Made by a program: the position numbers and the translations under genes
Shown: positions 1 to 39,176 of the stretch, in pieces
Position numbering within the stretch: the stretch's first letter is position 1
How the letters are laid out: every line of letters starts with the position of its first letter
NCBI GenBank assembly: GCA_028700625.1
Contig: JAQVSI010000008.1
Span: 1-39,176 of the forward strand
Length of the DNA stretch: 39,176 nt
Direction of reading: 5' to 3'
DNA from: Candidatus Shapirobacteria bacterium
Lineage (GTDB): Bacteria; Patescibacteriota; Microgenomatia; UBA12405
Notes under the pieces: model-generated
Seen by the model: the letters and a program-made list of their open reading frames with translations, nothing else
Databases searched by the model: none
What the model was told of the DNA's origin: nothing

Positions 1-365
1 TCAAATCCAGTGACGACATCATTCTTATCAAAAATAATTTTATAAGAATAAATATTTTCTTCACCAGATTCAAATTTTAATATCAAATCAGAAAAAGAAA
101 CATCGGGTTCTAAACCATCAGGAACTTCCTGTTTTTTAACACCAACAATTCTTTCTTCTACTTCTTTTGTTTTTTTGTTTACCAAAAAAAACTTTTTAAC
201 AGGAACATCAATTATTCTTGTTTTTGGTTTAAAAGGTACAATATATTTTCCAGTATCTTCGGGAGAAACATCAGATGAGGTAATTCCTAAATTTGGATTA
301 TCATGAACTCGACCTTCAATAACTCCAAAAATTTTATTTGTTTTTTTACTGTAAAAGATTATCAT
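1..365 (-). CDS. Hypothetical protein, 125 aa, spanning the circular junction (start codon at 365-363; stop at 39037-39039 after joining position 1 to 39049)
   Basis: Reverse-strand reading MIIFYSKKTNKIFGVIEGRVHDNPNLGIT... is open to position 1 and continues in frame through 39049-39037 to TAA. Confidence 0.8.
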   Translation of the reverse strand, partial: MIIFYSKKTNKIFGVIEGRVHDNPNLGITSSDVSPEDTGKYIVPFKPKTRIIDVPVKKFFLVNKKTKEVEERIVGVKKQEVPDGLEPDVSFSDLILKFESGEENIYSYKIIFDKNDVVTGF

Positions 366-3274: not shown

Positions 3275-4714
3275 TTACCTCTCTACAAAATTACCAAGAA
3301 CAATAATTTTTCTAATTGGACATTGAACACTAGAACTACCGTTTGAATAATCAACAAAACAACGAATATCCTCAACTGCTTTTAAGTTAATAGTTTTAAA
3401 AACGTGCATTGTCTTATTTTCACCAGTAACTTCAAAAGCATCCGTTATTGTCCCAGTCTCAGCTTGATTTCCTTCAATATAAATTTCTGCTTTTGCACCA
3501 GTAGCCAATGGTTTAGTAAAAACAATAATAGTATTAATATTCCCTAATTCTCGGCCTCTTGTAGTGCTAACAAAAATACTTTTCCACAAACTATCAACAG
3601 ATAATCCACTGAATTTAGCAATTCTGTGAGAATCAGTCCCATTCGTAGAGGCAATTATTGGAGTTCCAAAAGGAGCAGCAATTCCGCCAAGAGTGGCGTG
3701 ACCACCGTCTGCCAAAATAGAAATTTGGATAGGTAATTGACTAACTACTGATCCACAAGAAAGAATATTAGCCCCAGATAGAAATAATATTGTATTCATA
3801 TATAATGTTTTTTGCCTATGATTAGGTAAAGTTCCTGTAAAATATCTCAAAGGAGTTATTTGCCTACCATTTAACCATCCAATAGCAAAGAATCCCGATG
3901 TTTTATCTTCGTAAGCAACATAAAAAATACCATTTACAACGAAAGTGAATCCAATTCTTTGATTACCGACAGCAACTTCATCAGATAATTGATTAGAGGT
4001 GGCCGAAGCATCATATAAATAAATTTGACTTCTTCTTCCTTCACCATAATTTACCGATACATACCAAAGATTATTATAAAATTGAACATCAACAACTTCA
4101 GCCCCTTCTCCAAAATCTAATTTTTGAACATTGAGCAAGGCCTCCCCTTCTATATAAACTCCCAAATATCTACCGTTTCCAAATACAATAATATCCTCTT
4201 TAGCCGCGCAAGGATGGACTGCTTTTTCCAAAGCTTTATCAGTAGAACTTCCCCAATCAGGATCAATTGTTTCAGAAGCAATTGGCATTGTAGCAATATC
4301 ACCGCCAGAAGATTTATTGTAGAAAATAAAAATATTAGCACCGAGACGAATAATACTCTCCCCTTCAGTCATATCGGTTATTGTCTGTGGCCAACTAGGA
4401 GAACCACCACTAGAGATAGCAGTTGAGCTAAGTTTAAACAATTTCCCTGTTCCTACCGCATAAGTGACACTAGAGCTAACTGGCTTATCAAGAATAAATC
4501 TGATTAATTGATCAACAACTCCCGCCTGATTGCCATTTGTTAAATCAGCCAATGCCGGAGACTGTTGAAGAAAGCCCGGCAAAGAAATTATATCCGCCTT
4601 CATGTCACTAGCTTGACCATTATCACCAGTAAAAGTTTTATTGTCGATATGGGCCAAAGGGCTTAAACCCTCATTAAATAAGTCAAAATTTATTACAAAA
4701 TCATTATCTGCCAT
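3275..4714 (-). CDS. Putative beta-propeller-like tail/DNA-stabilisation protein
   Basis: ORF of 479 aa directly downstream of portal; repeated beta-strand blocks (P22 gp10-like position and style); family assignment is inference. Confidence 0.5.
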   Translation of the reverse strand: MADNDFVINFDLFNEGLSPLAHIDNKTFTGDNGQASDMKADIISLPGFLQQSPALADLTNGNQAGVVDQLIRFILDKPVSSSVTYAVGTGKLFKLSSTAISSGGSPSWPQTITDMTEGESIIRLGANIFIFYNKSSGGDIATMPIASETIDPDWGSSTDKALEKAVHPCAAKEDIIVFGNGRYLGVYIEGEALLNVQKLDFGEGAEVVDVQFYNNLWYVSVNYGEGRRSQIYLYDASATSNQLSDEVAVGNQRIGFTFVVNGIFYVAYEDKTSGFFAIGWLNGRQITPLRYFTGTLPNHRQKTLYMNTILFLSGANILSCGSVVSQLPIQISILADGGHATLGGIAAPFGTPIIASTNGTDSHRIAKFSGLSVDSLWKSIFVSTTRGRELGNINTIIVFTKPLATGAKAEIYIEGNQAETGTITDAFEVTGENKTMHVFKTINLKAVEDIRCFVDYSNGSSSVQCPIRKIIVLGNFVER

Positions 4715-11930: not shown

Positions 11931-12632
11931 ATGTTAGGAGAAAATCGACCAAAATTAGAAACAGGCGGAAATTTTGAGGCTTTTTCATCAGGTTTATATA
12001 CTTTGCAAATTGCAGATATAAATACTGCCATGGAATCGTATCAAAATAATGCGCCGGAAGAAAAGTTTAAATTTACTTTTTTTGTCTTAAATGACAACAA
12101 ATTTAAAAACGCGGAAGGAAAAGAGGTAACGACCAAAGGTAGAAAACTTTGGAAATCGTTTTCTAAATATGTCTCACCAAAGGCCAATCTTTTCCAATTT
12201 ATCATTTTATTAGATCCTAATTTTGCAAATTTAAGCACTGAAGAAAAACAAAATTATAATTTGGATGATCTAATCGGAAAACAAATAAACGCCCTTGTAA
12301 GTAAGGATAAAAGTAAAACTACTGATATTTCTTACAATAATATTAAATCTTTTGAAAAGTGTGAAACCGAATTAGAGGGAATCGAAGATTTGCCGGGGAA
12401 ACCAGTTGTAACAAATAAAGAATCTGTTCCCGTTACCGCTCCTGAAGAACCAACTTCTGAGAGTTCTGAGGATTTTGTAAAAAATCTTGAAAAACAAAGT
12501 AGTGAATTTAAGTCTGAAAAGACTGAAGTTACTCAACCAGAATTAAAAGAAGAGACTGAACAAGAGAAAAAAATAAGAGAAGCTAATGAGGCTATCGCAA
12601 AAATAAAAGCTGATGCCGGAATAAAAGATTAA
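11931..12632 (+). CDS. Putative ssDNA-binding/recombination-associated protein
   Basis: 233 aa ORF with strong AAGGAG RBS; FEAFSSGLYTLQIADI...KFKFTFFVLND... and acidic C-terminal tail; function is inference. Confidence 0.5.
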   Translation: MLGENRPKLETGGNFEAFSSGLYTLQIADINTAMESYQNNAPEEKFKFTFFVLNDNKFKNAEGKEVTTKGRKLWKSFSKYVSPKANLFQFIILLDPNFANLSTEEKQNYNLDDLIGKQINALVSKDKSKTTDISYNNIKSFEKCETELEGIEDLPGKPVVTNKESVPVTAPEEPTSESSEDFVKNLEKQSSEFKSEKTEVTQPELKEETEQEKKIREANEAIAKIKADAGIKD

Positions 12633-12636
12633 TTTC

Positions 12637-12822
12637 TTGCTTTACTCTTCAACGCACTGGTACGTTGGAGGGTAGCACAAGCAAATTATCAATTTTGCTC
12701 GTTCTTTAAATCAGACAAGTTTACTTGTTTGACTAGAACCTTTTAAAATTTTAATATTGGTGAAATACGTTGGCGGGAAACGGAAAAAGCGTAAGAAGCC
12801 GTCCTGATATTATAATTTTGTA
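12637..12822 (+). ncRNA. Unassigned structured RNA region upstream of the permuted tRNA
   Basis: Hairpin 12637-12684 (18 bp with one bulge), hairpin 12701-12739, helix 12745-12757/12807-12819 enclosing GGCGG/CCGTC pairing; no ORF. Confidence 0.5.
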
Positions 12823-12838
12823 CTTTAAATATTTTGAG

Positions 12839-12942
12839 CAGGGAAAGGTTGTTGGTTCGATTCCAACTATTATTTTGAAAGACAAATAATATAGCTCAAA
12901 GAGGAAACAAATTATTTCTTCGTGGTAGAGCGTTCCCCTGAT
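12839..12942 (+). tRNA. Circularly permuted tRNA gene (3' half first); anticodon probably GAT, junction-dependent
   Basis: GGGAA(12841-45) AGGTT(46-50) GTTGG-TTCGATT-CCAAC(51-67) TATTATT(68-74), 10-nt linker, AATAATA(12885-91) TA GCTC(94-97)...GG...GAGC(12928-31) G TTCCC(33-37). AATAATA/TATTATT and TTCCC/GGGAA are perfectly complementary. Confidence 0.8.
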
Positions 12943-12959
12943 CTAAGTATTTAAATATA

Positions 12960-13030
12960 TGCGAGGTAGTGTACGGAAGCACGTTGGGTTTCATCTCCCA
13001 TCGGAGCAAGTTCAACTCTTGCCCTCGCAA
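12960..13030 (+). tRNA. Conventional-order tRNA, anticodon ambiguous (TCA if 7-nt loop)
   Basis: TGCGAGG/CCTCGCA acceptor, D-arm GTGT-ACGGAA-GCAC, T-arm GCAAG-TTCAACT-CTTGC; anticodon stem imperfect; no encoded CCA. Confidence 0.75.
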
Positions 13031-13065
13031 CTTAATTATTAATTATTATCTTAAAAATAAAAAAT

Positions 13066-13455
13066 ATGAGCGAACAATTAACTTTAATAAATTGTGAAAG
13101 TTTAATAAACAGCGGTGTCGTCAGATTCGATATTCTTAAAAAAGAAACTGGTGATCTAAAATCTCAGTTGGATTCAATCTTAGAAAACGATGATGAATAT
13201 CAAAAACTTCGTGAAGATTCAAATAAAATTAGTAAGTTAAAGAAAATTTCCAAACAAAAAATAATGGCTCGACAAGAAGTAGCTGTTTTAAATGAAAAAA
13301 TTCGTGACGGAAATTCTCAACTAAAAGAACTTAAAACTGCTATTTCTGACTATTTGGCACAATATGTTATTTTGTCTGGAAGCAATCAAATTGAGTTAGC
13401 TGACGGAGTAATGAGACAAATTATTAGTTCAGCAAAATTAGTTAAATCTCTTTAA
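13066..13455 (+). CDS. Hypothetical coiled-coil protein
   Basis: ORF, 129 aa. Confidence 0.65.
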   Translation: MSEQLTLINCESLINSGVVRFDILKKETGDLKSQLDSILENDDEYQKLREDSNKISKLKKISKQKIMARQEVAVLNEKIRDGNSQLKELKTAISDYLAQYVILSGSNQIELADGVMRQIISSAKLVKSL

Positions 13456-17462: not shown

Positions 17463-17714
17463 ATGAAATATGTAATGTTTGACCATTCTTTCCCTGTAAT
17501 TTTCCAAGACGGAATCGGACACAATGAAATAAAAGTAAAAAATATGTCCCCTACTTCAGCTGGATTCGTTTCTGTTGTGCCGGGTATATCTAAAAAAAAC
17601 AAAGCAAGCGCCTACTTAGATATTAGAGTTTTTGGAGAGAGTATTAGTCTTGGACTCAAACCAAGCGATAGAGATTTAGAAATTTTTGAGAGGTATTTTG
17701 GAGAATATTATTAA
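17463..17714 (+). CDS. Hypothetical protein
   Basis: ORF, 83 aa, immediately upstream of rtcB. Confidence 0.55.
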   Translation: MKYVMFDHSFPVIFQDGIGHNEIKVKNMSPTSAGFVSVVPGISKKNKASAYLDIRVFGESISLGLKPSDRDLEIFERYFGEYY

Positions 17715-17726
17715 TTTATAAAAATT

Positions 17727-18929
17727 ATGGAAGTAATAAATACAGAAAAACAACCAATTAAAATTTGGTCAAAAAATACAGAAGCAGGAGCAATTAGCCA
17801 ATTGAAAAATTTGGCTAATTTACCTTTTATTCATAAATGGGTTTGTGCTATGCCAGATTGTCATCAAGGCTATGGTATGCCTATTGGTGGAGTTATTGCT
17901 ACCGAAGGAGTAATTATTCCAAATGCTGTTGGAGTTGATATTGGGTGTGGTATGTGTGCAGTTAAAACTTCTTTAACTGAAATTAGTCAAGATCAATTAA
18001 AAGAAATAATGGCTATGATTAGAAAAACAATTCCTGTTGGATTTAAACATCATTCTAAAAAACAAGATGAAAGTTTAATGCCAAAAGTTCCAAATTCTAA
18101 ATTTTATTCAGAAGAACATTTAAGAATAGAAATGCCTATTTGTGGACAAGAATATCAAAATGCATTAACTCAAATTGGCACTCTTGGTGGTGGAAATCAT
18201 TTTATTGAAATACAAAAAGGTGATGATGGTCATATTTGGATAATGATCCATAGTGGATCAAGAAATTTGGGATATCAAGTAGCGAATCACTACAATAAAG
18301 TTGCACAAGAATTATGTAGAAAATGGTATTCAAATATACCAGAATTTCACGGAGAAGATGGTTTGGCATTTTTACCTATTGATACTAAAGAAGGTCAAGA
18401 CTATTTAAACGAAATGCAATATTGTGTAGATTTTGCACTAGCAAATAGACTTTTAATGATGAATAGGATAATGGAATCATTTGAAAAAATAATTGGAAAA
18501 GGTAATTTTGGTAGTGTCCAAGATATTATAAATATTGCTCACAATTATGCTTCAATAGAGAATCATTTTGGAAAAAATGTTTGGGTTCACAGGAAAGGAG
18601 CAACCAAAGCATCGAAAGGTTTAGTTGGGATAATTCCCGGCTCAATGGGAACTTCGAGTTATATTGTTGAAGGTCTTGGAAATCCTGAAAGTTTTGAAAG
18701 TTGTAGTCATGGTGCTGGTCGTAAAATGGGAAGAAATGAAGCAGTAAAAACTTTAGATTTAAAACACGAACAAGAAATAATGAAAGGTATTTTAGGAGCG
18801 CCAAGAACTAAAGAAGATCTTCAAGAAGCACCGGGAGCATATAAAGATATTTTAGACGTGATGGAAAATCAAAAAGATTTAGTTAAAATTTTAGTTGAAT
18901 TAAAACCTTTAGCAGTTATTAAGGGATAA
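17727..18929 (+). CDS. rtcB: RtcB-type RNA ligase (2',3'-cyclic phosphate/3'-P to 5'-OH)
   Basis: VGVDIGCGM, GTLGGGNHF, HSGSRNLG, AHNYA, VHRKGATKA, PGSMGTSSY, SHGAGR - the RtcB metal/GMP-binding motifs are all present, full length 400 aa. Confidence 0.95.
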   Translation: MEVINTEKQPIKIWSKNTEAGAISQLKNLANLPFIHKWVCAMPDCHQGYGMPIGGVIATEGVIIPNAVGVDIGCGMCAVKTSLTEISQDQLKEIMAMIRKTIPVGFKHHSKKQDESLMPKVPNSKFYSEEHLRIEMPICGQEYQNALTQIGTLGGGNHFIEIQKGDDGHIWIMIHSGSRNLGYQVANHYNKVAQELCRKWYSNIPEFHGEDGLAFLPIDTKEGQDYLNEMQYCVDFALANRLLMMNRIMESFEKIIGKGNFGSVQDIINIAHNYASIENHFGKNVWVHRKGATKASKGLVGIIPGSMGTSSYIVEGLGNPESFESCSHGAGRKMGRNEAVKTLDLKHEQEIMKGILGAPRTKEDLQEAPGAYKDILDVMENQKDLVKILVELKPLAVIKG

Positions 18930-39049: not shown

Positions 39050-39176
39050 TCAAATCCAGTGACGACATCATTCTTATCAAAAATAATTTTATAAGAATAA
39101 ATATTTTCTTCACCAGATTCAAATTTTAATATCAAATCAGAAAAAGAAACATCGGGTTCTAAACCATCAGGAACTT
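39050..39176. repeat. 127-bp exact direct repeat of window start (circular-assembly overlap)
   Basis: 39050-39176 identical to 1-127. Confidence 0.95.

What the first reader, a model, noticed from the sequence alone, without database searches (positions are those of the whole stretch)
12839..12942. Circularly permuted tRNA gene in a phage genome
Read in genomic order there is GGGAA-AGGTT-GTTGG/TTCGATT/CCAAC-TATTATT (a tRNA 3' half), a 10-nt linker TTGAAAGACA, then AATAATA-TA-GCTC...GG..GAGC-G-TTCCC (a tRNA 5' half). Swapping the halves gives a canonical cloverleaf. It has a 7/7 acceptor stem, 4/4 D stem, 5/5 anticodon stem, 5/5 T stem, T8, A14, G18G19, a 5-nt AGGTT variable loop and TTCGA in the T loop. 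Permuted tRNAs are known from red/green algae, nucleomorphs and some archaea, where a splicing endonuclease and ligase make a circular precursor. I know of no established bacteriophage example. Caveats: the acceptor stem is all A-T, no CCA is encoded, the discriminator would be T, and position 37 would be C in the simplest joins. The anticodon depends on the junction: CTGATCA (GAT, Ile) or CTGAGCA (GAG).
Basis: partly seen in the sequence, partly recalled or inferred. Interest (0 to 1): 0.95.

Follow-up and report, generated by a model that had tools for sequence, protein, structure and literature searches.

The report
Phage RNA mimicking a rearranged tRNA
A small virus of Patescibacteria carries a real tRNA-shaped RNA whose two halves are in swapped order; most likely it is not a working tRNA but a decoy-like mimic built like the bacterial "Y RNAs", here without the Ro protein such RNAs normally bind.

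Summary
At 12841-12937 a tRNA 3' half precedes a tRNA 5' half with every expected stem intact (21/21 pairs). A covariance model built only from ordinary tRNAs permuted in silico finds it at 58.9 bits (rough E about 1e-16), and nothing in 143 Mb of shuffled window scores as high. The host phage is a complete 39-kb genome, related to a phage contig in a Patescibacteria assembly.

The interpretation needs changing. This order (T arm, closed acceptor stem, D arm, ends held by a basal stem) is the known anatomy of YrlA-type bacterial Y RNAs, which mimic tRNAs and are already reported in phages. Phages found through the window's RtcB gene or through sequence motifs carry such elements; Rfam calls several YrlA and Ro genes adjoin some. 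One (L275) shares the window's oddest feature, a hairpin inserted in the D loop, and is YrlA at E=1.7e-8.

The window element scores nothing against YrlA, lacks a recognisable Ro site, and neither phage, host bin nor 384 genomes of its phylum encode Ro. I therefore call it a YrlA-like, Ro-less tRNA mimic, not a confirmed YrlA. A functional spliced tRNA is unlikely: 30-nt D loop, C37, all-A/U acceptor, no BHB motif, no EndA.

The parts
12841..12874 (+). tRNA-like 3' half: anticodon-stem 3' strand, variable loop AGGTT, T arm with TTCGATT loop, acceptor 3' strand TATTATT
12875..12884 (+). 10-nt linker TTGAAAGACA that closes the acceptor stem as a hairpin loop
   Evidence: phage YrlA elements in L034 and L068 have 10-11-nt loops here
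12885..12937 (+). tRNA-like 5' half: acceptor 5' strand AATAATA, TA, D arm, G26, anticodon-stem 5' strand TTCCC
12901..12921 (+). Hairpin insert in the D loop (7-bp stem, 7-nt loop)
   Evidence: comparable insert in the phage YrlA of L275
12818..12840 (+). 5' strand of a predicted basal stem that extends the anticodon stem
   Evidence: MFE fold z = -3.3; flank duplex -8.5 kcal/mol, frequency 0.015-0.025 in two controls
12938..12959 (+). 3' strand of the predicted basal stem; ends where the next tRNA begins
12960..13031 (+). Ordinary-order tRNA, homologue of the host initiator tRNA-Met, with one extra base in the anticodon arm (8-nt loop TTTCATCT in the best register)
   Evidence: Rfam tRNA 45.3 bits, alignment to host tRNAs
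17727..18929 (+). RtcB RNA ligase gene of the same phage
   Evidence: Pfam PF01139 398.6 bits, PHROG 1075

Best explanation
12818-12959 encodes a stable noncoding RNA that works like the tRNA-mimicking domain of a YrlA-type Y RNA. Its own ends pair into a basal stem in place of an anticodon; at the top sit a T arm, an acceptor stem permanently closed by a 10-nt loop, and a D arm enlarged by a hairpin, so that D and T loops can form a tRNA elbow while the RNA can be neither charged nor decode. Shown: the permuted tRNA anatomy, its significance, the absence of Ro and EndA, and the presence of RtcB. Inferred: that it stays uncut, and that its role is to engage tRNA-binding proteins, as a decoy for tRNA-cleaving or tRNA-modifying enzymes or as a tether for a ribonuclease such as PNPase, without a Ro partner. 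The phage's RtcB and its extra tRNA-Met-like gene suggest a setting of tRNA damage and repair during infection (inference).
For: Full cloverleaf in permuted order, far above chance. The YrlA consensus of Rfam has exactly this order, with the same TAGCTCA...GGTAGAGC D-arm letters. YrlA in the literature: 5' and 3' ends form a large stem and a domain mimics D, T and acceptor arms (PMC8394870). Phages found through the window's RtcB or through motif searches carry such elements: L034 and L068 hit YrlA and have Ro genes beside them; L275 hits YrlA over the full model, 48.2 bits, despite a 26-nt D-loop insert, has the same AGGTT variable loop, and no Ro gene in its 115-kb record. RtcB, Ro and Y RNA genes share operons in bacteria (PMC7790460). 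Features that spoil a translating tRNA (30-nt D loop, C37, all-A/U acceptor, no CCA, T discriminator) do not matter for a mimic.
Against: The window element has no Rfam YrlA match even at E up to 10, no paired Ro-binding motif of the kind seen in L034 and L068, and no Ro (TROVE) gene in the phage, its bin or 384 genomes of the phylum. The basal stem is only modestly better than chance. No relative of the element was found, so no covariation supports it.
Confidence: 0.62

Rival explanations
1. A true circularly permuted tRNA gene. The precursor is cut at the anticodon-loop ends, RtcB joins the ends into a circle, and RNase P and RNase Z open the circle at the acceptor to give a mature tRNA.
For: Perfect complementarity of both stems; the phage encodes RtcB, which joins 5'-OH to 3'-phosphate or cyclic phosphate ends; with the D-loop insert left out and 7-nt loops the rejoined halves give a perfect cloverleaf in ARAGORN.
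Against: With the insert in place ARAGORN does not find the expected cloverleaf; C37 and an ambiguous anticodon; no BHB motif in the flanks; no EndA in the phage or bin; acceptor all A/U without usual identity elements; RtcB is common in phages without such an element.
Confidence: 0.15
2. A decaying or incidental structure: a relic of a tRNA or Y RNA, or a leader hairpin that helps to process the adjacent tRNA-Met-like transcript.
For: No homologue found in related phages; no recognised family; the flank is immediately followed by the next tRNA.
Against: All 21 pairs and the tRNA-invariant D and T loop letters are intact, unlikely in a relic.
Confidence: 0.15
3. A permuted group I intron-exon arrangement that circularises the tRNA by self-splicing.
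For: The 200 nt upstream are strongly structured (z = -4.5 for 12640-12959) and hold a GGCGGGAAAC...AAGCCGTCC stem of the sort found in group I cores.
Against: No group I intron match in Rfam at E up to 10; only 22 nt lie downstream before the next tRNA, too short for an intron half.
Confidence: 0.03
4. Two adjacent ordinary tRNA genes whose neighbouring halves look complementary by accident.
For: Such tandem pairs do produce high scores with the permuted model in host genomes, up to 56.8 bits.
Against: Neither half has its own partner in normal order, and 0 of 4,422 unrelated half-pairs match at both stems.
Confidence: 0.02

Closest known systems
YrlA-type bacterial Y RNA (Rfam RF02553)
   Same: Order T arm, closed acceptor stem, D arm; ends of the RNA pair as a basal stem; tRNA-like D and T loop letters; found in phages that also encode RtcB
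   Different: No Rfam match, no Ro-binding motif, no Ro gene in phage, bin or sampled phylum; hairpin insert in the D loop; A/U-only acceptor stem
Phage YrlA element of L275 / L286 (IMGVR_UViG_3300037117_000082, IMGVR_UViG_3300014501_000001)
   Same: Permuted order, AGGTT variable loop, closed acceptor (8-nt loop), D loop of 29 nt with a hairpin, no Ro gene in the record
   Different: G+C-rich with a perfect long basal stem; clear Rfam YrlA match
Circularly permuted tRNA genes of red and green algae, nucleomorphs and archaea
   Same: 3' half before 5' half with complementary stems (general knowledge; papers listed)
   Different: No BHB motif, no EndA, no usable anticodon loop without choosing a junction, D-loop insert
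Phage tRNAs with a hairpin insert in the D loop (L277, L279, L281, L285, L287 and others)
   Same: Insert in the same place of the D loop
   Different: Ordinary, unpermuted order

Membership tests
YrlA-type Y RNA | tRNA-like domain in the order T arm, closed acceptor stem, D arm | tested here: met
YrlA-type Y RNA | 5' and 3' ends form a basal stem continuous with the domain | tested here: inconclusive
   Predicted by folding; flank pairing frequency 0.015-0.025 in controls
YrlA-type Y RNA | Match to Rfam RF02553 | tested here: not met
   No match at E up to 10 over 12600-13070 or E up to 1 over the window
YrlA-type Y RNA | Ro-binding sequence in the basal stem | tested here: not met
   By inspection: motif pair GGTGCTGATAG / CGCCGCTTGCC seen in L034 and L068 has no counterpart pair; a lone GTCCTGATA at 12801-12809 has no 3' partner
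YrlA-type Y RNA | Ro/Rsr (TROVE) protein in the same genome or host | tested here: not met
   Absent from G000 and from 384 genomes of the phylum
YrlA-type Y RNA | Binds Rsr and PNPase | not testable with these tools
   Needs biochemistry
Circularly permuted tRNA gene | Halves in swapped order with complementary acceptor and anticodon stems | tested here: met
Circularly permuted tRNA gene | Rejoined sequence is a normal tRNA | tested here: not met
   Expected cloverleaf only when the D-loop insert is removed; C37 in 7-nt joins
Circularly permuted tRNA gene | BHB motif at the junction and a splicing endonuclease | tested here: not met
   No BHB by inspection of the predicted fold; no PF01974 match in G000
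Circularly permuted tRNA gene | RNA ligase available | tested here: met
   RtcB at 17727-18929
Circularly permuted tRNA gene | Circular intermediate | not testable with these tools
   No RNA data held
Permuted group I intron | Group I core on both sides of the exons | tested here: not met
   No Rfam group I match; 22-nt downstream flank

The most novel reading that the evidence does not exclude
A genuine permuted tRNA gene in a bacteriophage whose precursor is circularised by the phage's own RtcB, with an unknown endonuclease making the 5'-OH and cyclic-phosphate ends.
Probability: 0.12. Interest if true: 0.9.

Novelty: new variant of a known kind. Interest (0 to 1): 0.5.

Why it matters
If it is a Ro-less Y-RNA-like tRNA mimic, it separates the tRNA-mimicry function of Y RNAs from Ro binding, and places such a mimic in the same phage as RtcB, in Patescibacteria, a group in whose sampled genomes no Ro protein was found. 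That makes testable whether phages use tRNA mimics as decoys against tRNA-cleaving defence. It also warns annotators that apparent permuted tRNA genes in phages can be Y RNAs.

Tried and rejected
Chance and tandem-tRNA artefacts. Unpermuted tRNA at 12806-12875: mainly a T arm. Self-cleaving ribozyme flanks: suspected for L034 until the flanks proved to be the Y RNA basal stem with Ro genes nearby. Group I permuted intron: no Rfam match. UGA recoding, suggested by the TCA anticodon that ARAGORN assigned to the neighbouring tRNA: the main genes have no in-frame TGA, and that tRNA is an initiator tRNA-Met homologue. Searches for relatives through the neighbouring nuclease gene, primase, terminase and local DNA found either no relative or relatives without the element. 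The original Y RNA papers (PMC4201824, PMC6047535, PMC10870794, PMC6281776) are not held, so YrlA anatomy rests on the Rfam model, PMC8394870 and PMC7790460.

Full report
Observation. From 12841 to 12937 the order is anticodon-stem 3' strand, variable loop, T arm, acceptor 3' strand, 10-nt linker, acceptor 5' strand, D arm, anticodon-stem 5' strand. A scanner written for permuted tRNAs scores it 55.9 with 21 of 21 pairs; 3,651 dinucleotide shuffles of the window, 143 Mb, reach at most 47.0. It does not contain the window element. It finds that element at 42.8 bits in an unfiltered search, with the next best place in the window at 12.5, and over its full length at 58.9 bits with default settings. 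Other strong matches in 36 genomes of the host family were examined where loci were fetched and lie between neighbouring ordinary tRNAs; the window element does not, and ARAGORN finds no tRNA there. Halves of unrelated tRNAs never matched at both stems in 4,422 pairs.

Context. The window is contig C26 of an 813-kb assembly. A 127-bp direct terminal repeat indicates a complete genome of 39,049 bp, with terminase, major head protein, primase/helicase and tail genes. Its terminase is 62% identical to one in an assembly named Patescibacteria group bacterium UBA924, with nine genes shared. The phage encodes RtcB. The element is followed at 12960 by a tRNA related to the host initiator tRNA-Met but with one extra base in the anticodon arm.

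What else looks like this. RtcB was used to collect 47 viral loci. One, L034, holds several permuted tRNA-like units in a row, and a motif search with its flanks brought up another phage, L068, with two more. The flanks of these units pair and carry conserved letters, GGTGCTGATAG on one side and CGCCGCTTGCC or similar on the other (by inspection). Rfam gives these units sub-threshold matches to YrlA, the bacterial Y RNA family (E = 1.5e-5, 3.9e-4 and 0.014 in a search of about 60 kb), and the records carry genes for Ro (TROVE) near the units. The YrlA model shows the same permuted order. A review states that YrlA has a large stem made of its two ends and a domain like the D, T and acceptor arms of tRNA (PMC8394870); RtcB, Ro and Y RNA genes share an operon in Salmonella (PMC7790460); YrlA has been reported in phages (PMC7765460).

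The D-loop insert. A pattern for a T arm, a closed acceptor and a D arm with a 16-36-nt insert matched 19 viral stretches. Most are ordinary-order tRNAs with an insert, but L275 and L286 hold a permuted element very like the window's: AGGTT variable loop, 8-nt acceptor loop, 29-nt D loop with a hairpin, 21 of 21 pairs. L275 matches YrlA over the full model at 48.2 bits, E = 1.7e-8, folds into a long basal stem with the tRNA-like top, and its 115-kb record has no Ro gene. So a YrlA with this very kind of insert, in a phage record without its own Ro, exists.

Membership. The window element itself has no YrlA match, no visible Ro-site pair, and no Ro in the phage and bin or in 384 genomes of the phylum. 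Its basal stem is predicted (z = -3.3) but the flank pairing alone is only modestly unusual (0.015-0.025). By the rule set for this report I do not file it as a YrlA; I say that it is built like one and most likely works like the tRNA-mimic half of one.

Why not a working tRNA. A 30-nt D loop, C at position 37 in the simplest 7-nt joins, an acceptor stem of A and U only, no CCA, no BHB motif, no EndA. ARAGORN gives the expected cloverleaf only after the insert is taken out. RtcB is present but also occurs in many phages in which no such element was found, and can be explained as a repair enzyme, as argued for jumbo phages (PMC7824862).

Limits. There is no RNA evidence and no close relative with the element, so no covariation. 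E-values from the home-made model are rough. Virus records are often fragments, so absence of Ro in L275 is not proof. Absence of Ro from the window phage rests on a complete contig and on one Pfam profile.

Noticed in passing
window 12960-13031: Homologue of the host initiator tRNA-Met with one extra base in the anticodon arm, best read as an 8-nt anticodon loop TTTCATCT; ARAGORN misnames it tRNA-SeC (tca).
   Followed up: partly
window 12642-12740: Three strong hairpins in noncoding DNA upstream (z = -5.3), no Rfam family; possibly another RNA gene of the same cluster.
   Followed up: partly
window 1-127 and 39050-39176: 127-bp direct terminal repeat: complete circular or terminally redundant phage genome.
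   Followed up: yes
L034 17090-17990: Array of several YrlA-type units in a 183-kb phage contig beside a Ro gene; the unit at 17546-17618 keeps an intact tRNA-Lys(UUU) anticodon loop CTTTTAA, which suggests Y RNAs arising from phage tRNAs.
   Followed up: partly
L068 6914-7168 (minus strand): Two tandem YrlA-type units directly beside a TROVE (Ro) gene in a 19-kb viral contig.
   Followed up: partly
L278 about 4332-4440 and 4516-4610: Two permuted tRNA-like units with 7/7 acceptor pairing in a 233-kb phage record with no Ro gene; no YrlA or group I match in Rfam; the second unit's flanks do not pair by inspection. Possible true permuted tRNA genes.
   Followed up: partly
L277, L279, L281, L285, L287, L290, L291, L293: Ordinary-order phage tRNAs with a hairpin inserted in the D loop, a recurrent feature that ARAGORN misses here.
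   Followed up: no
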